Of a stretch of DNA of 64,000 nucleotides, positions 10,046-56,240 are shown in pieces. A program made the position numbers and the translations under genes. The notes below the pieces were generated by a model. It saw only the letters and a program-made list of their open reading frames with translations, was not told the DNA's origin and did no database searches. Source of the DNA: Polytrichum commune (taxonomy: Eukaryota; Streptophyta; Polytrichopsida; Polytrichales; Polytrichaceae); the NCBI GenBank assembly GCA_950295325.1, contig OX485808.1, positions 2,730,501 through 2,794,500 of the forward strand, in the 5' to 3' direction. Position 1 is the first letter of the stretch; every line of letters begins with the position of its first letter.

Positions 10046-11890
10046 TGTGAGGCCAAACCCCCCACCCTTAAGCGTCCGTAGTCCGAGTAGTGGGTTTGGG
10101 CTCACATTCCTCCGCGGTATTGGATTTGGACTTGGATGAGTCCATAGTGCAATGTTCACCCTTCAAGTGGTCTTGGATTTAATTGGTGTCTCCATACCGT
10201 ACATAAGCCTTTAAGTATTAAGAAATACTTATGTGACTTATGTCAATCTCTCCCTCGCACCTTTGGTCTTTGCTTCCTTTGTCTTGCCATCGCGAGAGTG
10301 CTCCACATTCTCCATTAAGTTGTGCACGTGGTTTATTTTTAAAGAGAGGATGCAAGTGTTAAAAAAAACACTATTCTCTATAGTTAATCTCAAATACATT
10401 TACTTGTGAAAGCCACACATAACACTAACTAGCATAATGTAACTAACTACTTGTCTATGAGCTAATTAGGTAGGCTATCTACTAAGCTCCTTCATGAACC
10501 CATCTCTTTACTTTCTAATTACATAAACCTAGCTCCTTCATAAACCCAGCTCCTTCATGAACCCAGCTCCTTAGCTTCTAACTAAACAAACCCAGGTCCT
10601 TCATAAACCCAGCTCTTTACTTTCTAACTAAACAAACCCAGCTCCTTCATAAACCCAGCTCCTTCATAAACCCACAACTTTGTAGTTGTAATCCCCAACT
10701 ACCTCACTAATTATTCAAGCCCTTAACTAATCTTCCTACCTAATTTCCCTAATTCTACTAACAACCCCTTTCTAATCACACAATTCTTCTCTAATCCTAA
10801 AATCCTAAAATCCTAGAGAGGAGAGGGGGAGAGAGAATTTCCTAACTTCACTAAGACTAACTAATCCACACAAGTATATTTTTGCACTCATCACAACATC
10901 AAGTGCTCAACTCTTAAACATGGAACTTGCAACCACGTGTGTTCAAAACATGAACTTTAAGTACCACAAATTGGAATCATGAATTAAACTTAAAATCCTT
11001 CACGTCAACACTAATTCTACCAAGAGGTCAAGCCCTCTTCAAGGCTAACAAGCCTTGGCTCTCAAACTAAAAACTAAGCACACACATGTGCTCCAATATG
11101 GCTTCCCACACCCACACTTATAACTCGTGGGGTGCCTTGGAGCACAAAGGAAAGAGAGGATGAGTGAGGGAAGAATGAGGGATTATATAGTAAGCTTGAG
11201 GGGGTGAGCACCCTCAAGGCTCACGATAAGCCCTTGAGATTTCCTCCTACTTAGTAGGCGCCAATCCTATCTTCTAAGCCTTCCTCCCTCAAATGATCAA
11301 CAAGGATCCTAATTCGAACATTTAACTAGCCTTGGCTTTCTACCTACCACACTTTACCAAACTTGGGATGCTTCAACCCAAACTTAGCCTCCTTCGCTTT
11401 CCGCCGCCATAACTTTCTCCCCTTACTTTCCCAAATCGTCGCTCACCACTTAATTCAAACCACGATGCTTAACTCGTGATTTGATTGGTGCTTTGAGAAT
11501 TTGCTTATCCTCCACCTTGCATTCTTCCTTGGGCCTTCCCCATTAAGTGGCCATGATGAGGTGGTCCACTTGTGCGCTCCATGTGATCCTCCATTCATCC
11601 CAATTCGAATGCACTTGCCTCTTGAGTCACTTTGGTTGTCTCCATCCATTTGTACTAGCCTACTCACTAACTACTCAATCCAAGTTCTCCTTACCTATCC
11701 TCATTCACTCAAATCCTTCCGAAGGTAAAAATACAATAACAACTCACATCCTAGCCTCTTACAACATGGTACTTCTAAGACTAACATTTCACTCTTTTTA
11801 TATTTTTGTGAAGTAACATGCTACTTCAAAGTGCATCAACTAACGTTTCAGGGGTCTAAGACTAAATGTGGGCACCCTTTTGGGCTCACA
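10046..11890 (-). repeat. 3' LTR of the gypsy element
   Basis: 1845 bp. Every ORF and sampled stretch matches the LTR at 19090-20934 at a constant offset of 9044. It contains a tandem array of CCCAGCTCCTTCATAAA-type units at about 10485-10680. It lies about 60 bp beyond the pol stop codon. Confidence 0.95.
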
Positions 11891-19089: not shown

Positions 19090-20934
19090 TGTGAGGCCAA
19101 ACCCCCCACCCTTAAGCGTCCGTAGTCCGAGTAGTGGGTTTGGGCTCACATTCCTCCGCGGTATTGGATTTGGACTTGGATGAGTCCATAGTGCAATGTT
19201 CACCCTTCAAGTGGTCTTGGATTTAATTGGTGTCTCCATACCGTACATAAGCCTTTAAGTATTAAGAAATACTTATGTGACTTATGTCAATCTCTCCCTC
19301 GCACCTTTGGTCTTTGCTTCCTTTGTCTTGCCATCGCGAGAGTGCTCCACATTCTCCATTAAGTTGTGCACGTGGTTTATTTTTAAAGAGAGGATGCAAG
19401 TGTTAAAAAAAACACTATTCTCTATAGTTAATCTCAAATACATTTACTTGTGAAAGCCACACATAACACTAACTAGCATAATGTAACTAACTACTTGTCT
19501 ATGAGCTAATTAGGTAGGCTATCTACTAAGCTCCTTCATGAACCCATCTCTTTACTTTCTAATTACATAAACCTAGCTCCTTCATAAACCCAGCTCCTTC
19601 ATGAACCCAGCTCCTTAGCTTCTAACTAAACAAACCCAGGTCCTTCATAAACCCAGCTCTTTACTTTCTAACTAAACAAACCCAGCTCCTTCATAAACCC
19701 AGCTCCTTCATAAACCCACAACTTTGTAGTTGTAATCCCCAACTACCTCACTAATTATTCAAGCCCTTAACTAATCTTCCTACCTAATTTCCCTAATTCT
19801 ACTAACAACCCCTTTCTAATCACACAATTCTTCTCTAATCCTAAAATCCTAAAATCCTAGAGAGGAGAGGGGGAGAGAGAATTTCCTAACTTCACTAAGA
19901 CTAACTAATCCACACAAGTATATTTTTGCACTCATCACAACATCAAGTGCTCAACTCTTAAACATGGAACTTGCAACCACGTGTGTTCAAAACATGAACT
20001 TTAAGTACCACAAATTGGAATCATGAATTAAACTTAAAATCCTTCACGTCAACACTAATTCTACCAAGAGGTCAAGCCCTCTTCAAGGCTAACAAGCCTT
20101 GGCTCTCAAACTAAAAACTAAGCACACACATGTGCTCCAATATGGCTTCCCACACCCACACTTATAACTCGTGGGGTGCCTTGGAGCACAAAGGAAAGAG
20201 AGGATGAGTGAGGGAAGAATGAGGGATTATATAGTAAGCTTGAGGGGGTGAGCACCCTCAAGGCTCACGATAAGCCCTTGAGATTTCCTCCTACTTAGTA
20301 GGCGCCAATCCTATCTTCTAAGCCTTCCTCCCTCAAATGATCAACAAGGATCCTAATTCGAACATTTAACTAGCCTTGGCTTTCTACCTACCACACTTTA
20401 CCAAACTTGGGATGCTTCAACCCAAACTTAGCCTCCTTCGCTTTCCGCCGCCATAACTTTCTCCCCTTACTTTCCCAAATCGTCGCTCACCACTTAATTC
20501 AAACCACGATGCTTAACTCGTGATTTGATTGGTGCTTTGAGAATTTGCTTATCCTCCACCTTGCATTCTTCCTTGGGCCTTCCCCATTAAGTGGCCATGA
20601 TGAGGTGGTCCACTTGTGCGCTCCATGTGATCCTCCATTCATCCCAATTCGAATGCACTTGCCTCTTGAGTCACTTTGGTTGTCTCCATCCATTTGTACT
20701 AGCCTACTCACTAACTACTCAATCCAAGTTCTCCTTACCTATCCTCATTCACTCAAATCCTTCCGAAGGTAAAAATACAATAACAACTCACATCCTAGCC
20801 TCTTACAACATGGTACTTCTAAGACTAACATTTCACTCTTTTTATATTTTTGTGAAGTAACATGCTACTTCAAAGTGCATCAACTAACGTTTCAGGGGTC
20901 TAAGACTAAATGTGGGCACCCTTTTGGGCTCACA
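19090..20934 (-). repeat. 5' LTR of the gypsy element
   Basis: 1845 bp, the upstream LTR for the minus-strand genes. It holds the promoter candidate at 20226-20234 and the tandem CCAGCTCCTTCATAAAC-type array at about 19530-19725. It is followed on the right by the CAAAT target duplication. Confidence 0.95.
20226..20234 (-). promoter_or_regulatory. Probable TATA box of the gypsy LTR
   Basis: On the minus strand the sequence CTATATAAT is followed by a pyrimidine-rich stretch (CCCTCATTCTTCCCTCACTC), as is usual for plant core promoters. The orientation agrees with gag-pol. The expected start is about 30 bp downstream, near 20200. Confidence 0.55.
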
Positions 20935-46811: not shown

Positions 46812-47689
46812 GGCCTCTCTATAATATACACATTTGCATGTAAAAAATCTTGCAGAGCAAATGTAGTTTCACTTACATAAAACTCAAAGACGTTCCATTT
46901 TTTGAATCAACTTTTGATTTTGTTCAATACCACCACACAATATCCTTACATCCACTGGACTCGGGATCCAATAATAAAGGACATACATGATGCATTAACC
47001 TACAAAACGCCTATGGTATCTCTATTATAAGTCTATATACCAATATGTTTGGAAGGGGGGGGGGGGTGGCGGGACAAGAAGGTGAAGTCATCCAACCTCC
47101 AATCACTACAAGAAACCTTGTCCATTCCAACCATGGTATCAATGACTCACTGTCCTAAACAACTCATTAAACGACTGTGATGCCTACTCAACTCACCTTG
47201 TGTGACGTGGCTAACATGTGAGTCATTGTTAAGTCATTTAACTGACTTATGATGAACTCTGTTGACGACCGCACAACATACTCATTTTATGTCTACCAAA
47301 TATCATCCACTACATCCATTCGTGTGTGACGTGGATAGAATATCATGACTTGGCTGATTATTAGTCATTATCTGGTTGTGATTTAACGACTACGTGTATA
47401 CTATTACTTAGAAATAACACAAATATGTGATGTGGCACTTACATCCCTCTAATGACGTGGAAATTAGGGATGTATTGAGTGAACATTATTCTCGATAATA
47501 TTGACGTGTCAAAAGAATGACTACGACTTCCAAACTCAATGACTGGTTTTGAGCGCTGGTTGGAAGTGCACGAACGCGCCACGTGGCTACATCTCCGCCG
47601 TTCATATGAACGGTGTGGATGCAGTCCACCTCTTTGAGGCTGAGTAGGGGTCAGAGAGTGTTGTCGAACTCCCCCCCTCATTCTCTCCC

Positions 47690-48010
47690 TTTGGATTTGC
47701 GCTCATCTCTCGCTCCTGGTAACCTCTCGTCTTTCATAATCCTCGGTTCCAATTCGGTCCTGGAACATGGCAGTTTCATATTGGCTTCAGAGTTTGAGAT
47801 TCTGGAAGAGCAGATGCAAAGAAGGGATTTCCAGTATAGCTAATCCCCAACGATGGTTCCCCGAACCCTAAACCCCAAATCTCCTATTCCTTGCGAATTC
47901 AAACCTCTTGGCTTTCATAATCTTAAGTTCGAATTCGGTTGAGTACATAATGGCTTCAGATTTGGAGATTCTGGAAGAGCTAGATAGTGAGAAGCGATTC
48001 GGGTGTAAGT
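47690..48010 (+). pseudogene. Captured host-gene-like first exon, duplicated, inside the CACTA element
   Basis: Two similar units lie in tandem. Each has CTTTCATAATC, then TTCGAATTCGGT / TTCCAATTCGGT, then GGCTTCAGA and GAGATTCTGGAAGAG. The second contains an ATG at about 47950 reading MASDLEILEELDSEKRFG, followed by GTGTAAGTAG, which looks like a splice donor. The layout suggests a 5' leader and first exon of a cellular gene copied into the transposon and then duplicated. The gene is not identified. Confidence 0.4.
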
Positions 48011-48971
48011 AGTTGATCTTTAGTTGAGGAGAGTTCCATCTGATCACTTCAACCCTAGTAAAAAATGTATGTCGATGATGGATTCGAGGGCTAACAACTT
48101 ACAAATGCTCCCCGGTCCACCGATCATCAGGTGCTCATGATCCACTTACTTGTGATTGTGCCATTTTCCCGCCATTTCCTCACCTGTGTCGATCGGACTT
48201 GAAACAGAGCTGGAGCGTCTGCTTAGAATGTTTACGGAGTAGGTTAACTCTTAGATCGGAAGTAATACACCGTTTGGCGTTCGTAAGTCGCAGATTCCAC
48301 TCACAGCAGTAGAGGTGGTTTGACTGTCGCTTTCTACAGACAATGTTGAATCCTAGTGGGAGGCGATCATTCTTGTGGAGTGAATTAATTGAACTGCAAA
48401 CGTGGACTGCTTGTAGCAGAGATTGTGGACACTCTTGAGAGTAAAGGGACCCGCTAGAATAGTTAGACACGCGTTTATCATAATCTAATACTTTTGATTG
48501 ATAATCAAGTATTCACCATGTTGTTGGACATACTGACGGGTTGAAACCTTCCATGGCAGGATGAATGGCTTGAAAAACAACGGCACAGTCGATGATAGGG
48601 ATGGTCGAATTGTGGGATATATGCCAGGTAGTGTAAACAGGGGATTGGTGCAAACTTGTTGGTGAGATTTTCAAGCTCAAGTTGATTGTCACTGCGCTAG
48701 ATTGTGTAAAGTGTTCTGATAGTAGATTGTGAGGGTTGTTTTTTTCAAGATGTCTTCCATTCGTGGAATCTCCTCTTTCCCAACTCAGTGACATTAGCCT
48801 TCTTCAAATGTTCTTGATTCAGAGTCCCTGCAAATGCTATCCTTCATAGCATTTGTTAGAAAATTCGGTTCTTGAGTTAACTGGAAACTTCACATGTATT
48901 GCCTTCTGCATTCGTTTGAGGAGACTTTAGTAAAGGTAGTGTTAGGTTATGTGAGTTAGAGCACCAAGGGC

Positions 48972-49320
48972 ATGGCTGCAACCAGGGTCACTGTGGTTGA
49001 ACAACGTCTGGATGTGGACACACTTCAGGCGCTTTGGGAGTACGATTAACTTTAGGGCTGCCACACTCTTGCTGGTCTCTATGAACTGTTACAACATACA
49101 GGACAACGGATTCACGAGCGTCAGTATGATCCATTACAAACTTACAAGTCTACAAGGTGGGTAAATCTGTACTTCAAGATCGTCAGGTAACCTACGTGGT
49201 GCTATGAGGTGCAGTACGCACATACAAGAGCGGACAGGTGAATAGGAAGGTTGAAATGGACAGTGCCGATGGCATGTTGTATCTCACTCCAGATACTGGA
49301 AGCAATGGTGATTAGGAACA
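48972..49320 (+). pseudogene. Captured gene-like fragment inside the CACTA element
   Basis: From the ATG at 48972 one frame reads MAATRVTVVEQRLDVDTLQA and then LWEYD. After two stops in the same frame it reads LYELLQHTGQRIHERQYDPL. Further on, at about 49242-49316, another frame reads VEMDSADGMLYLTPDTGSNG followed by a stop. The text looks like real protein with decay. I do not recognise the family. Confidence 0.35.
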
Positions 49321-50439
49321 ACTTGTGAACCATGAACTATACCAGCTCAATCTCTTTCTAGCTTTGTTGTTTTTGTTGATATCAGCTTGGGTTGGTTATT
49401 GCTATGACAGGAAAAAGTCTATTGAAGATAGATTGTAACTGAAGCATTTGGGCATTGTGAGACTAGAGAAGGTGGATAACATCTCTTGCAGAACCATTAT
49501 ACCTGATTGGCATCACTGGAACTTTAAAGTTTAGAATTAGCAAAAATAACTTACTTGAGAGTTTTGTCACAGGTCTTCAAATTTGTTACTCTATTTATCA
49601 AGGTGAGCCAATTGTTATGCGTCATGGGCATTCCTCAACAAACAGGAGTGACCACATCAGTGGCAATGTGCCAAATCCTGCAAGGCTTGATTTAAGGTCT
49701 TGCTATTAAATTAACATGTCATTTTGGGAAACGGGTACAACAATTTGTCGTTTTAACGCTTCTTAACCTTCCCGAGGCTATATAGCTCTTTTCTTATTTT
49801 CCCATTTTCTACAATCCTGTAGGTTCAAGATTTATTGAGTTTTTAGCCTAAACTCGACCTTTCCGAAAGCCCTTGTGAGGTCAAACTTGGACGTGCAGAG
49901 TGGAAAAGGGGATGGATAGACCAACAGCATGTGCCATACGCATTGTTTTGTCCTTCACAGCGAAGGTGTGTGGGCCTAAATTGCTTATTTATCTTTGTGG
50001 GACACCTATAATTGAGTGGTGTGTGCGTAGATTATCCATAGAAGTGGGTTATTGCAGAAAGTGTTCATCTATTTGTTTCCTGAGAGGGCGAGAGAGATGA
50101 CTTCTTTCAAAACAACACAATTCTAAGTTGATGATGCTTCCTCTAGGTAGATAGAGGTGCAGTCTTTTCTATGCTTCTGTTGCAAAATCGTGGTGGGTGG
50201 GTGAGTGGGTTCAGAATTTCATGAAATCCACCAATACATGGCAACCAATCTGAATGAAAGAAGATCCCAGATTTGTTTAACAGATTGACCAAGCAAAACA
50301 TAAACTTGAACAAGTGACTGATGAACTAAAAGTAGTCGTTGAGTAACCAGGGCCTCAATGTGCTGACAGATGGCCTATTAATGAATGAATAAACCAGGCC
50401 TCAATATGCTGACGGATGGCCTAAACCTGTGCACATGTC

Positions 50440-50850
50440 ACTAGCATGCAGTCACTCAATAGTCATTCAATAGTCGTTCACTAGTCATTCAATAGCAACA
50501 TAATAGTCATTCAATAGTCGTTCAATAGTCATTCAATAGTAACATAATAGGCGTTTATGATACAACTGGAAAATGACTACACAAGAACTATGTTTATGAA
50601 CACGTGGCATTATATTACTTGCCCACATGTTACGATGACGGGGCCAATTGACTCGGGAGCCACGTGTTTGTTGACATGGCGTTCATGCCACGTCAGATAA
50701 TGACTGGATGTGATGACGTGGCGTGTATGCCACGTCAGATGATGACCTGGATGTGAGGTTGTGGCGTGGATGCCACAATAGATGATGATTTGGATGTGAG
50801 GTCGTGTCGTGGATGCCACGTAATGGCACGTGAAATACCAGTCATCTCGG
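50440..50850. repeat. Subterminal repeats of the CACTA element
   Basis: At 50455-50550 there are tandem ATAGTCATTCA / ATAGTCGTTCA units. At about 50665-50830 there are repeats of roughly 50-60 bp built on GTGGCGTGNATGCCACGTCA and GATGATGA. In CACTA elements such subterminal motifs bind the element's own DNA-binding protein. Confidence 0.7.
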
Positions 50851-51164
50851 TTTGCCACGTCCGCTGTCCATGTTTACGACTGTCCTATACGACTATATCA
50901 TCCGAATTCCCACGTCACGTCCCCAACGACTGTCTGTCCGTTACTACTCGTCCGTAATAACACAAAAATTAATAGTCATTGTAGTCCTCAATGACTCAAA
51001 TAACAGTCATAAACAAAGTCGTTTTTTGTCGATTTTCTAGTAGTGAATATGTCCTTCCACATTTTACAACTAGTTACTCAAGCAAGTTCTAGGATGTCAA
51101 ATTAATCCACACATATGGTATCTCCTATAGGCCATTCCACCTATTCAAGTGCAACATATAAAAA

Positions 51165-51468: not shown

Positions 51469-53286
51469 TCAAGAGCATTGAAGCCAAGTCATCAATTTTC
51501 TCCAGGATCGACTCAAGCGTTTGCGGGTGGAGAATTTGACCTCCTTGACCACCACTGTTTGACAAAGATTATTTTTCTTCAAGGTCGTCGTCCAAGGTTT
51601 TCTACCCCAAGCCTCCGGTATCTCCTTCAAGCCTTGACACCCCAATAACTCAACAGAGGTCAAGGAGGTCAAATTACCCAACGCCTCCGGTATCTCCTTC
51701 AAGCCTCTACACTTTCTTAAGTTGAGGGAGGTCAAGGAGGTCAAGTTACCCAACGCCTCCGGTATCTCTTTCAAGCCTCCACAATAACTTAAGTTGAGGG
51801 AGGTCAAGGAGGTCAAGTTACCCAATGCCTCCGGTACCTCCTTCAAGCCTTTACATTTACATAAGTCGAGTGAGGTCAAGGAAGTCAAGTTACCCAACGC
51901 CTCTGGTATCTTCTTCAAGCCTTTACACCAACTTAAGTCGAGTGAGGTCAAGGAGGTCAAGTTTCCCAACACCTCCGGTATCTTCTTCAAGCCATGACAC
52001 CAACTTAAGTTGAGTGAGGTCAAGGAGGTCAAGTTACCCAACGCCTCCGGTATCTCCTTCAAGCCTCTACAATCACGTAAGTCGACGGAGGTCAAGGAGG
52101 TCAAGTTACCCAACGCCTCCGGTATCTCCTTCAAGCCTCTACACTCACTTAAGTTGAGGGAGGTCAAGGAGGTCAAGTTACCCAACGCCTGCGGTATCTC
52201 CTTCAAGCCTCTACACTCACTCAAGTTGAGGGAGGTCAAGGAGGTCAAGTTACCCAACGCCTCCGGTATCTCCTTCAAGCCCGAACACCAACGTAGGTTG
52301 AGGGAGGTCAAGCAGGTCAAGTTACCCAACGCCTCCGGTATCTCCTTCAAGCCTTCACAATACCATAAGTCGAGGGAGGTCAAGGAGGTCAAGTTACCCA
52401 ACGCCTCCGGTATCTCCTTCAAGCCTTCACACCCTCTTAAAAGGAGGGTGGTCAAGGAGGTCAAGGTACCCAACGCCTCCGGTATCTCCTTCAAGCCTTC
52501 ACACGCACTTAAGTTGAGGAACGTCAAGGAGGTCAAGTTACCCAACGCCTGCGGTATCTCCTTCAAGCCTTTACACAACCTTAAGTCGAGGGAGGTCAAG
52601 GAGGTCAAGTTACCCAAGGCCTCCGGTATCTCCTTCAAGCCTTCACAACAACTTAAGTCGAGGGAGGTCAAGGAGGTTAAGTTACCCAATGCCTCCGGTA
52701 TCTCCTTCAAGCCTTCACACCGACTTAAGTGGAGGGTGGTCAACGAGGTCAAGTTACCCAACGCCTCCGGTATCTCCTTCAAGCCTTCACACGCACTTAA
52801 GTTGAAGAACGTCAAGGAGGTCAAGTTACCCAACGCCTGCGGTATCTCCTTCAAGCCTTTCCACCAACTTAAGTCGAGGGAGGTCAAGGAGGTCAAATTA
52901 CCCAACGCCTGCGGTATCTCCTTCAAACCTTCACAATAACTTAAGTCGAGGGAGGTCAAGGAGGTCAAGGTACCCAACGCCTCCGGTATCTCCTTCAAGC
53001 CTTCACATCCATTTAAGTCGAGGGAGGTCAAGGAGATCAAGTTACCCAATGCCTCCGGTATCTCGTTCAAGCCTTTACACTCACTTAAGTTGAGGGAGGT
53101 CAAGGAGGTCAAGTTACCCAACACCTCCGGTATCTCCTTCAAGCCCGAACACGAACGTAGGTTGAGGGAGGTCAAGCAGGTCAAGTTACCCAACGCCTCC
53201 GGTATCTCCTTCAAGCCTTCACAACAACTTAAGCCGAGGGAGGTCAAAGAGGTCAAGTTACCCAACGCCTCCGGTATCTCCTTCAA
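51469..53286 (-). pseudogene. LRR array of the kinase-NLR (C-terminal part)
   Basis: 605 codons. There are 23 complete 24-residue leucine-rich repeats with consensus GLKEIPEALGNLTSLTSLDL followed by S-x-C-x, then a partial repeat and a basic tail of about 45 residues. LRRs form the ligand-sensing solenoid of an NLR. Variation is concentrated around the LxLxxC part of each repeat, the concave face. Two further repeats lie upstream (to about 53360) but are out of frame after a one-base loss near 53290. Repeats 7-9 resemble 11-13, and repeats 2-3 resemble 14-15, so blocks of repeats were duplicated. The first ATG is only an internal Met; the true protein would begin far upstream in the kinase. 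It is called a pseudogene because of the upstream breaks, although this segment is open. Confidence 0.85.
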
Positions 53287-53360
53287 GCCTCACACCCACT
53301 TAAGTGGAGGGTAGTCAAGGAGGTCAAGGTACCCAACGCCTCCGGTATCTCCTTCAAGCC
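51597..53360 (-). repeat. 72-bp coding minisatellite (LRR array)
   Basis: About 25 tandem 72-bp units, very similar to each other at the DNA level. Because the unit is a multiple of three and lacks stops in another frame, it also produces long meaningless antisense ORFs. Confidence 0.95.
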
Positions 53361-53671
53361 TTCATAATTCCAAAATCACGATTTTTTTCGAAAATCACCA
53401 CCAAACATTGGAGATTTTTTGATTGATTCAAAAATTTATCCAATGAGATTGAACCATCAAAACCTTGAAAACCAAAATATCGGAGCGAAACCAAAATATC
53501 GGAGCGAAACCAAAGGTTTTGTAATGTCAAAGTGTGTTTTGAATTCCTTTGTTGGTTCATTGAAAGAAAGGCATTCCATACGCTCCATAATTGTTTGTGT
53601 TCTCCCACTCCATGTTGCATTTTGTATTTTCCACCATCGAGTACCTTTATACATGGGGTCTGTTTCCACAA
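53354..53671 (-). pseudogene. Linker between NB-ARC and LRR of the kinase-NLR, frame-shifted
   Basis: After the duplicated 19-bp unit the reading continues in this frame as LRYFGFQGFDGSISLDKFLN, then LQCLVVIFEKNRDFGIM, the usual pre-LRR region. It stops at the point where the LRR motif GLKEIPEAL begins in a different frame. It overlaps the previous segment out of frame. Confidence 0.6.
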
Positions 53672-54152
53672 TCATACGTCCCATATCCCGTAATTGATCA
53701 TGGATTTCATAGACTCCATCTTTATCAATCTTAACCAAGGATTTATCTTCGAGACGTTTCAACGATTCTTCAGGATTTTTGTTCACATCTCGCCATAAAC
53801 GTGATGAGGTAACAACTCGTAATGTATCCATTGGGACCAAATCTTTGCTAAAATGACAACATAGGTCCAAAAACAAGTTCTTTTCTTCTTGGGTAAGGTC
53901 GTCGAAGCTTATCCGTAGGCAATGCCAAACTTCATTGTTATTTTCCGATCCCAACGCTCTTGCCCTTTGTAGTCTTTGCCAAGCTCGCACCCAAATGCGT
54001 AGTCTCTTCAATCCATACAATGTTCCACCCACAACTTTCAAGCTCAAAGGGAGCCCTCTACATGCATCCACAATGTTCTCGACGATGTCCACCATATGAG
54101 ATGGTACTTCATATCCTTGATCACCAAAAGCATGCCTAGAGAATAATTTCAT
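53457..54152 (-). pseudogene. ARC and winged-helix part of the NB-ARC domain
   Basis: Open frame of 231 codons. The GLPL motif is at residues 33-36 (CRGLPLSLKVVGG) and an MHD-like motif at 150-152 (YEIHDQLRDMGR). These close the nucleotide-binding pocket of NLRs, and the His-Asp of the MHD-like motif is present. The frame differs from the P-loop segment; the break is near 54160-54170. At the other end an exact 19-bp tandem duplication (53471-53489 and 53490-53508) shifts the frame and ends this ORF. Confidence 0.85.
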
Positions 54153-54741
54153 AGCTTCGCCTTTGATAATCTACACGACCAACATCTCCCAGGTTTTCCA
54201 TAAGGTGCCAATCACGAGTTGTGATGATCATCTTGTTAGTACGCTTGGCTTTGAAGATATCAACATCCATCAACTCATGAATTTGCGTACTATTGCCAAT
54301 GTCATCAACAACAATGAGGGCATTTTTGTTTGTGATTGTTTGGCAAAGACGGGTCCTTGCCTGTTTAATGTCTTTCACATCATCGACCATTGCCCCTAAG
54401 TTGCTCAAGATTTCTTTGAAAATCTCCATAGTGCCACAATCTTGGTTCTTCATGAAAGTAAAGCAAATTGCTTCAAATTGACCACGCATACGTTCCATCA
54501 CAACTTTTGCCAAAGCAGTTTTGCCCATTCCACCCACCCCTATAATGGCCACTATGGACTGTTTCTCCAATGCTTTTGTAACCCTTAAGATTCTTTCTCG
54601 CATACCAACAAGCTTGTTTCCTCCCTCCTTTGCACTTGTGTCCCCCTTGTGCTCCATAGTACCTATTGTCGGTTCAATGTTCCCACTTGTTTCTTGAGTT
54701 TGAGGGATGTTGGCCTTGTCCATCTTTACAACATTGTTCAT
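54136..54741 (-). pseudogene. NB (P-loop NTPase) part of the NB-ARC domain
   Basis: Open frame of 201 codons. The P-loop GVGGMGKT is at residues 68-75, kinase-2 LIVVDD at 142-147 and RNBS-B KMIITTRD at 170-177. All the residues expected for ATP binding are present. It starts 6 bases after the stop codon of the kinase segment and in the same frame, so the TGA at 54748-54750 is all that separates them. It ends at TAG, where the sequence changes frame into the ARC part. Confidence 0.9.
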
Positions 54742-54747
54742 ATTGTT

Positions 54748-54981
54748 TCAAGCATTAAAATGAAGTTCTTGCCGAATTTGACGGAGCCTCGAACAAATAT
54801 CTTGAAAGGTTGGCCTTTCAGATGGTTTGAAAGACCAACAATCTTTGATCAAAGATGTCAATGACTCAGGGCAATCGGGCGGCAAGATCGGCCTCTCTCC
54901 GACTTCCATCCTTTCTTTTATCTCGGATCTCCTACATTGTGAGAATGGAATCACCGCTGTGAGAATGTAAGAACACACCAT
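54748..54981 (-). pseudogene. Kinase C-lobe of the kinase-NLR, frame-shifted
   Basis: It continues the kinase after a frame change. SDVFSFAMVCSYIL precedes and overlaps the start, followed by ERPILPPDCPESL, IKDCW and KPSERPTFQDICSRLR, the standard subdomains IX-XI. It ends LHFNA with TGA at 54748-54750. The shift lies between 54995 and 55030 and is explained by one missing base. Confidence 0.88.
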
Positions 54982-56189
54982 GGCAAAGCTGAATACGTCA
55001 CTTTGAAAGCATTCACAAGATGTTTCAAGGTGTCATCGTATGCTACAAATGTCTCTGGTGCCCTGAACCCGGCGGAACCTAGATTATGGCATGTTGGCTC
55101 TTCGTACGCATCTTGTGCTTCAATTTTTGAAATTCCAAAGTCGACCAATTTAACTTTCACGTAGCCCCTAGAAACCAATATGGGATCATTCAAAGAGTTC
55201 ACAAGGATGTTTTCAGGCTTCAAGTCACGGTGTGCAACATTCATGTCATGAAGATAGAGCATTCCGCTTGCAATTTGGAACATGACATCAACGGCAACAA
55301 GATTTGATCGTTGCAAATCAACGTTCTTCATAATTGCAACTCCGAGATTTCTCTCCATCTTCTCCATCACTATATATCGCCATTTGCCATCATGGTCACC
55401 TCCTTCACCACAACATATGAACTTAACAATGTTTGGATGACTCAACCCTGCTAAGATGCCCACTTCTTTCTTGAAGTTTGCATACGCTTTATCTTCAGAA
55501 TCAATGTCAACCGCTTTAAAAACCTTCATAGCCAATTCCAAGCCGAAGCAATTTGTTTCGTATATTTGTCCAGAAGCACCACGTCCCAACGGAGTTGATC
55601 GTTGAGGAATCCGATTGTATGCTGGAAATGTACCGCCATTCAACTCAACGCCTTCTCCATCCATTCGACAAACCAACCGGTCGTAGGCATACTTTGCAAC
55701 TTCCTGATCCTTCAAGGATTTTGTTGCATGACTATGTTTCGACAATTGTTGGACCAATGCGTTTCGGTCTTTCTCCACTTCTGTTTTATTGATCGGATGG
55801 AACTCTATGGACCTTTGAAGGTCCATGGTCATTATCCCCAATATTTGGAATTGCTCACACAATGTACTGAAAATACAATTGAGTTCTTCAAGCAACTCAC
55901 GAAACTCTTCTTCATTATTCATCTGCCACAATGATGCATGGATCCAATCGTCCCTACTGCAATCTTGGATTAATGCCTGGATTTTACACACAACTCGATA
56001 TAAATCCTTCATACTTGGTCCAAGCTTCATTTTGTCATGAACTTGTTGGACCAAAGTCTTCAAACATTGGACAACAAGATTCGATTTATTTTTTAAATGC
56101 AAACATTGTTTTGCATTCAATAAGATTTCCTTTTGTTCCAATTGCTTCAATTTTATTGAGCACTCCATCAAAAGCTGGGAGTTCTTCAT
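54951..56189 (-). pseudogene. N-terminal helical region and protein kinase of a kinase-NBS-LRR (PNL-type) receptor
   Basis: Open frame of 412 codons. Residues 1-170 are helical and leucine-rich and resemble the N-terminal region of plant kinases that carry a DUF1221-type domain. The kinase starts near 196: glycine loop GRGASG (202-207), Lys222 in AMK, Glu242, HRD at 320-322, DFG at 350-352 and APE at 377-379. By motif it would be an active Ser/Thr kinase. The last 16 or so codons are out of frame and the true C-lobe is at 54748-54981. The frame is open upstream of this ATG to about 56240 without another ATG, so the start is uncertain. Together with NB-ARC and LRR this is the PNL architecture known from mosses. 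A sequencing-error explanation is weakened by the 19-bp duplication and by the intact 4.3-kb pol ORF nearby. Confidence 0.88.
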
Positions 56190-56240
56190 GATGCAATACT
56201 TGCCGTATGCCCTCGAATAAATGTACTTTATGAAATCTCA

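What the first reader, a model, noticed from the sequence alone, without database searches (positions are those of the whole stretch)
51469..56240. Kinase-NBS-LRR (PNL-type) immune receptor, broken at five points
Helical region, kinase with all catalytic motifs, NB-ARC with intact P-loop, kinase-2, GLPL and MHD-like motifs, and LRRs lie in order on one strand. The breaks are a frameshift in the kinase (about 55000-55030), a TGA between kinase and NB-ARC (54748-54750), a frameshift in NB-ARC (about 54165), a 19-bp tandem duplication (53471-53508) and a one-base loss in the first LRRs (about 53290). Each piece is otherwise well preserved, so inactivation looks recent. An alternative is that the six-base gap between kinase stop and NB-ARC ATG separates two products.
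Basis: partly seen in the sequence, partly recalled or inferred. Interest (0 to 1): 0.75.

Follow-up and report, generated by a model that had tools for sequence, protein, structure and literature searches.

The report
Broken moss kinase-NLR immune receptor
This looks like a recently broken copy of a moss-type immune receptor gene whose intact sister copies resemble a cell-death kinase fused to a sensor built from very similar repeats that differ mainly at four positions.

Summary
On the minus strand, 56189-51469, lies a helical-kinase-NB-ARC-LRR gene in pieces. Five of nine fetched paralog loci carry the whole architecture in one open frame (1479-2089 aa), so this is a recently inactivated member of a tandem cluster; the two-product alternative is rejected. 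The family is more interesting than the locus. (1) This clade lacks the phase-0 kinase/NB-ARC intron described for Physcomitrella PNLs and seen in another PNL of this genome. (2) The helical region plus kinase resembles plant MLKL (DUF1221 bundle plus kinase), a link I did not find in print. (3) The LRR arrays (15-42 units in nine close loci, at least 110 in one distant relative) vary mainly at positions 19, 21, 22 and 24, which recalls fungal NLRs with highly conserved repeats, though they miss that group's 85% amino-acid criterion. The locus is ordinary; the family is a notable variant.

The parts
55638..56189 (-). N-terminal helical domain, read here as an MLKL/DUF1221-type four-helix bundle (residues 1-184 from the first in-frame ATG)
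   Evidence: hhalign of window-clade profile A6 to three DUF1221-like kinases of the same genome: prob 92.9, E 3.7e-7; Pfam MLKL_N E 0.0047, below cut-off
55047..55598 (-). Protein kinase domain, N-lobe and first part of C-lobe, catalytic motifs kept (motif names recalled)
   Evidence: Pfam Pkinase 1.2e-29; AMKVFK, AHRDLKPEN, VDFG, APE read
55005..55006 (-). Break 1: one-base loss in an A run (approximate place), frameshift in the kinase
   Evidence: alignment with 7 paralogs
54784..55008 (-). Kinase C-lobe end, in the shifted frame
   Evidence: Pfam PK_Tyr_Ser-Thr 2.5e-15
54748..54750 (-). Break 2: TGA stop in the kinase to NB-ARC linker
   Evidence: TCA in 7 of 7 paralogs
54184..54567 (-). 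NB-ARC, first half (P-loop, kinase-2)
   Evidence: Pfam NB-ARC 1.8e-16
54168..54169 (-). Break 3: 11-base loss, frameshift in NB-ARC
   Evidence: alignment with 7 paralogs
53664..54161 (-). NB-ARC second half (GLPL) and winged-helix domain (IHD in the MHD place)
   Evidence: Pfam NB-ARC 9e-11 and WHD_ROQ1 6.8e-9
53469..53514 (-). Break 4: 19-bp tandem duplication, frameshift
   Evidence: TRF; absent from 7 of 7 paralogs
53361..53362 (-). Break 5 (new): junction of a deletion of 214 (+72k) bases removing the linker and first irregular LRRs
   Evidence: 5 of 5 paralogs measured have 214 bases more; BLAST blocks to L017, L018, L019, L020 and L023 end at 53362
53290..53292 (-). Break 6: one-base loss at the end of the first repeat unit (approximate place)
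   Evidence: unit spacing 71 instead of 72
51634..53360 (-). LRR array, 24 units of 72 bp, variable mainly at codons 19, 21, 22, 24
   Evidence: AlphaFold2 model of residues 51607-53289, pLDDT 84.7
51469..51633 (-). C-terminal tail and stop codon, tail end shared with L017 and L019
47104..51045 (.). 3942-bp CACTA-like insertion with 3-bp target duplication AAT, 423 bp past the gene's stop
   Evidence: uninterrupted in L017, L019, L022, L024; ends read

Best explanation
The locus is a recently inactivated copy of an intronless kinase-NB-ARC-LRR (PNL-type) receptor gene in a tandem cluster. Shown: pieces in order, six disruptive changes not seen in the paralogs compared, intact single-frame paralogs. 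Inferred for intact members: the four-helix bundle plus kinase is an MLKL-type executor, held off by the NB-ARC switch; the LRR solenoid binds a pathogen or modified-self ligand through variable residues of its strand face; ligand binding lets the NB-ARC oligomerise and bring bundles and kinases together, giving immune cell death. New specificities come from gain, loss and exchange of 72-bp units. This copy can make at most the bundle and a kinase cut off in its C-lobe.
For: Breaks private against the paralogs compared. Intact frames of 1479-2089 aa in 5 of the 9 paralog loci fetched. Private N:S 13:11, one-sided p 0.046 against neutrality; kinase region 0 nonsynonymous and 4 synonymous, on both sides of the break. 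MLKL link: PNL N-terminal profile A3 (7 rows) against three DUF1221-like kinases (A7), prob 97.7, E 1.7e-12; A3 against all PDB sequences up to E 1 hits only 6lba, E 4.1e-6; A7 itself hits 6lba best, E 0.0018; kinase profile A4 scores 6lba 186.8 and 6ka4 176.2 bits, the rest of the list 134.5 or less except one chain; controls with other NB-ARC genes' N-termini prob 0.7 and 1.5. The DUF1221 model itself reaches three PNLs at 17-20 bits (NB-ARC neighbours). LRR: pN 0.446 at four codons against 0.042 at the other 20.
Against: No expression or read data, so inactivity is inferred from the frame only. Breaks 1 and 6 are one-base losses in short A runs, which sequencing can also produce. L021, intact, has 50:19 private changes, about the neutral ratio, and was not in the pool of four. 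The window-clade N-terminal profile alone (A6) hits nothing in the PDB up to E 1, the single window N-terminus hits no MLKL there, and the single window kinase does not single out 6lba (rank 2, 57.9 bits, behind a calcium-dependent kinase at 59.6), so the MLKL link runs through other PNLs. Pfam hits of PNL N-termini are below curated cut-offs: DUF1221 2 of 7, RPW8 2 of 7, MLKL_N 1 of 7 at E 0.05. Chain 9p9u, labelled EGFR, scores 188.4 bits in two stretches, above 6lba. The control profile A5 has little diversity (rows 82-85% identical). The model of bundle plus kinase was too poor to use (pLDDT 36).
Confidence: 0.8

Rival explanations
1. The breaks are assembly or sequencing errors and the gene is intact.
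For: Two of six breaks are one-base losses in A runs; the LRR array is a hard target for assembly.
Against: The others are a TCA to TGA substitution, an 11-base loss, an exact 19-base duplication and a deletion of at least 214 bases. Similar arrays in L017-L021 read open throughout.
Confidence: 0.05
2. The locus still makes a useful short product: the four-helix bundle plus a truncated kinase, a stand-alone executor fragment or an inhibitor of intact sisters.
For: The first ORF keeps the whole bundle and the kinase up to about 55005; no private nonsynonymous change in the kinase stretch before the break (0:2). In mammalian MLKL the N-terminal domain alone suffices to trigger necroptosis (start of the abstract of PMC11476962, seen in the listing).
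Against: The same lack of change is seen after the break (0:2), so it need not come from selection on the short product; the bundle itself has 4 nonsynonymous to 2 synonymous private changes. The counts are too small to decide.
Confidence: 0.08
3. The broken gene survives as a store of LRR units copied into intact sisters by gene conversion, as pseudo-V genes do (recalled comparison).
For: The array is one open frame of 606 aa. For 24 window units the most similar unit lies in another gene in 16, in the same array in 6, tie 2; mean unit identity to other genes (0.850-0.884) is about that within the array (0.874).
Against: The same is true of intact L018 (12 other, 2 own, 4 tie), L019, L020 and L021, so it shows shared or exchanged units, not a donor role; in L017 (24 own of 42), L022 (9 own, 7 other, 5 tie) and L024 (28 own of 36) the own array wins. 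Conversion tracts were not tested.
Confidence: 0.07

Closest known systems
PNL class of Physcomitrella patens (Xue et al. 2012, PMC3352924; abstract and Results read)
   Same: Kinase, NBS and LRR in this order; a large class, mostly incomplete (6 of 45 complete in P. patens by their Table 1).
   Different: The paper describes a conserved phase-0 intron between kinase and NBS; L017-L021 and L027-L029 of this genome have none there, while L030 has it.
Plant MLKL, DUF1221-kinase proteins (described in PMC10951266, passages read)
   Same: Four-helix bundle followed by a kinase; the PNL N-terminal and kinase profiles match PDB chain 6lba in the same order (residues 21-129 and 277-515). That 6lba is AtMLKL3 is recalled.
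   Different: Fused to NB-ARC and LRR; window-clade kinases keep HRD and DFG motifs, whereas AtMLKLs are described as pseudokinases (PMC10951266 passages).
Fungal high-internal-conservation NLRs, het-d and het-e WD40 repeats (PMC12222747 and PMC4986451, passages read)
   Same: Very similar sensor repeats, variable number, a few hypervariable sites per repeat.
   Different: LRR instead of WD40; NB-ARC in a plant. Unit identity in the window array is 0.874 in DNA but 0.794 in protein, under the 85% used in PMC4986451.
Kinase-type NLRs (Pkn-NLR) of non-flowering plants (PMC11218826, passages read)
   Same: Same class; a P. patens kinase gave a modest, variable cell-death response in N. benthamiana.
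   Different: The passages seen treat the N-terminus as a kinase and mention no MLKL-type bundle in front of it; the whole text was not read.

Membership tests
PNL class | N-terminal protein kinase domain | tested here: met
   Pfam Pkinase 1.2e-29; in one frame with NB-ARC in L017-L021
PNL class | Central NB-ARC with P-loop, kinase-2, GLPL, MHD-like motif | tested here: met
   Pfam, both halves; motifs read; split by an 11-base loss in this copy
PNL class | C-terminal LRRs | tested here: met
PNL class | Phase-0 intron between kinase and NBS (distinguishing mark in PMC3352924, not its naming criterion) | tested here: not met
   Kinase and NB-ARC contiguous in one frame in L017-L021 and L027-L029; intron present in L030
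PNL class | Monophyly with P. patens PNLs on an NBS tree | not testable with these tools
Plant MLKL (DUF1221-kinase) | DUF1221/HeLo-type four-helix bundle | tested here: inconclusive
   Profile match to DUF1221-like kinases and to 6lba, but not by the window clade alone; Pfam hits below cut-offs; no usable model
Plant MLKL (DUF1221-kinase) | Kinase domain of the MLKL kind | tested here: inconclusive
   Profile of four PNL kinases: 6lba and 6ka4 at 186.8 and 176.2 bits, others 134.5 or less except 9p9u at 188.4; the single window kinase is not specific
Plant MLKL (DUF1221-kinase) | Cell-death activity of the bundle | not testable with these tools
   needs expression in leaves
High-internal-conservation NLR | Repeats over 85% identical over at least 100 aa (amino-acid criterion in PMC4986451) | tested here: not met
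   Mean amino-acid identity between units 0.794 in the window array, 14% of pairs at 0.85 or more; 0.754-0.830 in eight relatives. Measured as a mean over unit pairs, not with that paper's method
High-internal-conservation NLR | Few hypervariable sites per repeat | tested here: met
   entropy 1.8-3.3 bits at positions 19, 21, 22, 24, at most 0.9 elsewhere, nine loci; pN tenfold higher. Less sharp in distant L026 and L028, where position 17 also varies
High-internal-conservation NLR | Positive selection at those sites | tested here: inconclusive
   pN/pS 1.10 over nine loci, 0.58-1.77 in the six genes computed singly; pS is raised there too

The most novel reading that the evidence does not exclude
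PNL receptors of this plant are MLKL proteins fused to an NB-ARC-LRR: sensor, switch and necroptosis-like executor in one chain. In the intronless clade the sensor is a modular array of interchangeable 24-residue LRR units differing mainly at four exposed positions, so specificity evolves by shuffling units, much as in fungal HET-E and HET-D receptors.
Probability: 0.45. Interest if true: 0.8.

Novelty: new variant of a known kind. Interest (0 to 1): 0.52.

Why it matters
The broken locus is an ordinary case of NLR birth and death. The family matters more. If the kinase end of PNLs is an MLKL-type executor, one class of early land-plant NLRs joins the sensor to the same kind of death module that other lineages use as a separate protein, and the prediction is directly testable in leaves. 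If arrays of 15 to at least 110 very similar LRR units are shuffled to change specificity, plants would share a repertoire-building mechanism described for fungal NLRs.

Tried and rejected
Intron or splicing explanation of the breaks: rejected, because the paralogs are open and contiguous across these places. Two products: rejected. More PNL copies in the window: tblastn of the L018 kinase-NB-ARC protein finds only this locus. Structure of bundle plus kinase from a single sequence: pLDDT 36, not used. Profile of the window-clade N-terminus alone against the PDB: no hit up to E 1; single sequence: one weak hit, a BLOC-1-related subunit. The first pN/pS table used wrong codon numbers and was redone. 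Homogenisation inside each array was expected; it shows in L017, L022 and L024 but not in the window copy and the other five. The 85% amino-acid criterion of fungal conserved-repeat NLRs was tested late and is not met. Two long frames in the DNA between L024 and L025 looked like transposon genes to me, but Pfam finds no family at E 0.001, so I do not claim it. Literature on such LRR arrays in plants and on an MLKL link of PNLs: searches showed none in the rows listed (23, 53 and 67 list 20 of 38, 15 of 78 and 15 of 31), in this open-licence library only. The species was not identified: the genome has 408 Mb in 64 contigs, and C1, C2, C4, C5, C6 and C7 are 42 to 78 Mb; about seven chromosomes with a PNL class would fit a Polytrichales moss, but that is recall and inference.
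Full report
What is there. The window is G000:C6:2730501-2794500 of a 408-Mb genome. On its minus strand the open frames 54951-56237, 54748-55032, 54136-54747, 53457-54170 and 51469-53289 carry, in order, a helical region and kinase, the kinase end, the two halves of an NB-ARC with winged helix, and LRRs (Pfam). The first in-frame ATG of the first frame is at 56189. The LRR part is a tandem array of 24.5 copies of 72 bp. ORFs of up to 313 aa on the plus strand opposite the array look like by-products of its composition.

The breaks against relatives. A search of the whole genome with the first half of the NB-ARC (150 of 405 candidates scored) gives 26 places at 74% identity or more, counting the window itself (two of them partial), 12 more at 49-56%, and a 74-residue fragment at 59%. 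The other 37 of these 38 places lie in open frames of 749 aa or more, one of them with a stop inside the match; a kinase search shows stops in several of them. Seven of the close places lie on the same strand between 2.73 and 3.33 Mb of C6. I fetched nine loci around close paralogs. L017-L021 each hold the whole architecture in one open frame of 2089, 1479, 1583, 1503 and 1732 aa, beginning like the window copy; L017 and L019 also end like it. L022 has two overlapping frames, L023 several, and L024 and L025 look like one gene cut in two. The DNA of L017-L023 was aligned with the window copy: the one-base loss near 55005, the 11-base loss near 54168 and the 19-base duplication occur in none of these seven, and the TGA is TCA in seven of seven. 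The loss near 53290 shows as a unit spacing of 71 instead of 72. A sixth break is new: at 53361/53362 the copy passes from the linker after the NB-ARC straight into a repeat unit. L017, L018, L019, L020 and L023 each have exactly 214 bases more between the same anchor and their first unit; L021 and L022 were not measured.

Age and nearest relative. Outside the LRRs (944 codons) the copy is 95.0-96.6% identical to the seven relatives, most similar to L017, 58 kb away. A tree with midpoint root sets it with L021 instead (99/99), and the nearest relative changes along the gene, so exchange between copies is likely. Changes found only in it are 13 nonsynonymous, 11 synonymous and 1 stop; without constraint about 2.6 nonsynonymous per synonymous change is expected (p 0.046 one-sided, 0.066 two-sided). 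The intact copies L017-L020 have 33:37, not different from the window copy (Fisher p 0.64); one further change of L017 scores as a stop against the other genes' codon although L017 is open. Left out of that pool were L021 (intact, more diverged, 50:19) and the broken L022 (29:13) and L023 (19:5, one stop). By region the window copy has 4:2 in the bundle, 0:2 in the kinase before and 0:2 after the frameshift, and 9:5 plus the stop in the rest. The counts are small, but they fit a gene constrained until recently. A 3942-bp insertion with CACTA-like ends and a 3-bp target duplication lies 423 bp past the stop; L017, L019, L022 and L024 are uninterrupted there, while L018 has other DNA and the remaining loci are not informative. 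Whether it came before the breaks cannot be told.

An intronless clade. Xue et al. (PMC3352924, abstract and Results read) describe a conserved phase-0 intron between kinase and NBS in Physcomitrella PNLs. In L030 of this genome the kinase and NBS exons are separated by a short intron that starts GT and ends AG, phase 0 by inspection, and a further gap separates NBS and LRR frames; L031 has the same three-frame layout. L017-L021 and L027-L029 have no interruption. This points to loss of introns in an ancestor of the clade, perhaps through a cDNA; that step is inference.

The helical region and kinase. Pfam gives the window N-terminus MLKL_N (E 0.0047), and two other PNLs (L041, L042) DUF1221 (6.5e-4 and 8.7e-4) and RPW8 (4.1e-4 and 0.01), all under the curated cut-offs; over seven PNL N-termini, DUF1221 matches two, RPW8 two and MLKL_N one at E 0.05. 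A DUF1221 search of the genome gave 16 matches, one over the cut-off. Three of the weaker ones (E 0.11, 0.19, 0.47 for the genome) lie beside NB-ARC hits, so they are PNLs. Others are genes with a DUF1221-like N-terminus and a kinase; in the stretches read (L039, L040, L044) no long frame with the exact motifs GKTT or GLPL followed. Two of these N-termini pass Pfam's DUF1221 cut-off. Profile comparison of seven PNL N-termini with three such genes gives probability 97.7 and E 1.7e-12; with the window clade alone, 92.9 and 3.7e-7. Controls with N-termini of three other NB-ARC genes (CNL-like by eye, 82-85% identical to one another, hence a weak control) give 0.7 and 1.5. Against all PDB sequences the seven-row profile matches only 6lba (E 4.1e-6); a six-row version gave 6lba first at E 0.0021; the window-clade profile alone gives nothing. 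The DUF1221-like genes match 6lba first at 0.0018. The profile of four PNL kinases scores 6lba 186.8 and 6ka4 176.2 bits; 9p9u, labelled EGFR and matched in two stretches, scores 188.4, and the rest of the list is at 134.5 or below. The single window kinase is less specific: 6lba is second, among many kinases of similar score. That 6lba and 6ka4 are Arabidopsis MLKL proteins is recall; the database calls them 'Protein kinase family protein' and 'F22L4.1 protein'. The window clade keeps HRD and DFG, whereas L030 and L031 read HLD and DYD, so both active-looking and pseudokinase-like versions occur.

The LRR arrays. In nine loci with 221 units (220 without stops used) the 24-residue unit GLKEIPEALGNLTSLTSLDLSWCE is nearly constant except at positions 19, 21, 22 and 24 (entropy 1.8-3.3 bits; at most 0.9 elsewhere). 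Nonsynonymous diversity is 0.446 at these codons and 0.042 at the other 20; synonymous diversity is 0.41 and 0.11 (217 units kept). Diversity is concentrated at these sites, but positive selection is not proven. In distant relatives the pattern is less sharp: position 17 varies most in L026 (2.4 bits) and also in L028 (1.5). An AlphaFold2 model of 561 residues of the array (pLDDT 84.7) is a solenoid with a strand at about residues 17-21 of each unit, so positions 19 and 21 fall in the strand and 22 just after it; Foldseek matches plant receptor ectodomains and SHOC2. Unit numbers in the nine loci run from 15 to 42; L026 has at least 110, L027 77, L028 73 and L029 43. Mean identity between units of the window array is 0.874 in DNA and 0.794 in protein. 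Unit order of the window array is collinear with one of eight relatives at z above 3 (L019, 3.5; next L022, 2.4), and 16 of its 24 units have their nearest relative in another gene; L017, L022 and L024, in contrast, have theirs mostly in their own array. This fits unit turnover with exchange across the cluster. The closest known pattern is that of fungal NLRs with highly conserved repeats (PMC12222747, PMC4986451, passages read), whose 85% amino-acid criterion is not met here; one passage mentions a single LRR case, in a sea urchin.

Verdict. As a locus it is ordinary NLR decay: in Physcomitrella only 6 of 45 PNL genes were complete, and of the nine closest genes here (window, L017-L023, and L024 with L025 taken as one) four are broken. 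The reading of PNLs as MLKL-type executors fused to a modular sensor is the part worth testing.

Noticed in passing
window 47104-51045: 3942-bp insertion with CACTACAAGAAA / CACTACTAGAAA ends and 3-bp target duplication AAT, no stop-free frame over 110 aa; the same place is uninterrupted in L017, L019, L022, L024.
   Followed up: partly
L024 and L025 (G000:C6:3327001-3335500 and 3344501-3352000), L032 between: A sister gene appears cut in two in the kinase to NB-ARC linker by about 15.5 kb of other DNA, with frames of 548 and 663 aa that match no Pfam family.
   Followed up: partly
L026 (G000:C6:37266001-37276000): A relative with at least 110 LRR units, part of a 3674-aa open frame; a 504-aa off-frame ORF with the same ends occurs twice, 3168 bp apart, suggesting a duplication inside the array.
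   Followed up: no
window 10046-10345 and 19090-19389: Direct repeats, 100% identical over 300 nt, 9044 bp apart, with further shared sequence at the same spacing; possibly the ends of a young LTR element.
   Followed up: no
LRR units, codons 17-18: Synonymous diversity is raised also at codons 17 and 18 (0.44 and 0.26) next to the variable sites, although their protein sequence is fairly constant; unexplained.
   Followed up: no
L039, L040, L044: Genes with a DUF1221-like N-terminus and a kinase, without a following NB-ARC motif in the stretch read; seven DUF1221 matches lie on C5 between 49.25 and 49.40 Mb.
   Followed up: partly
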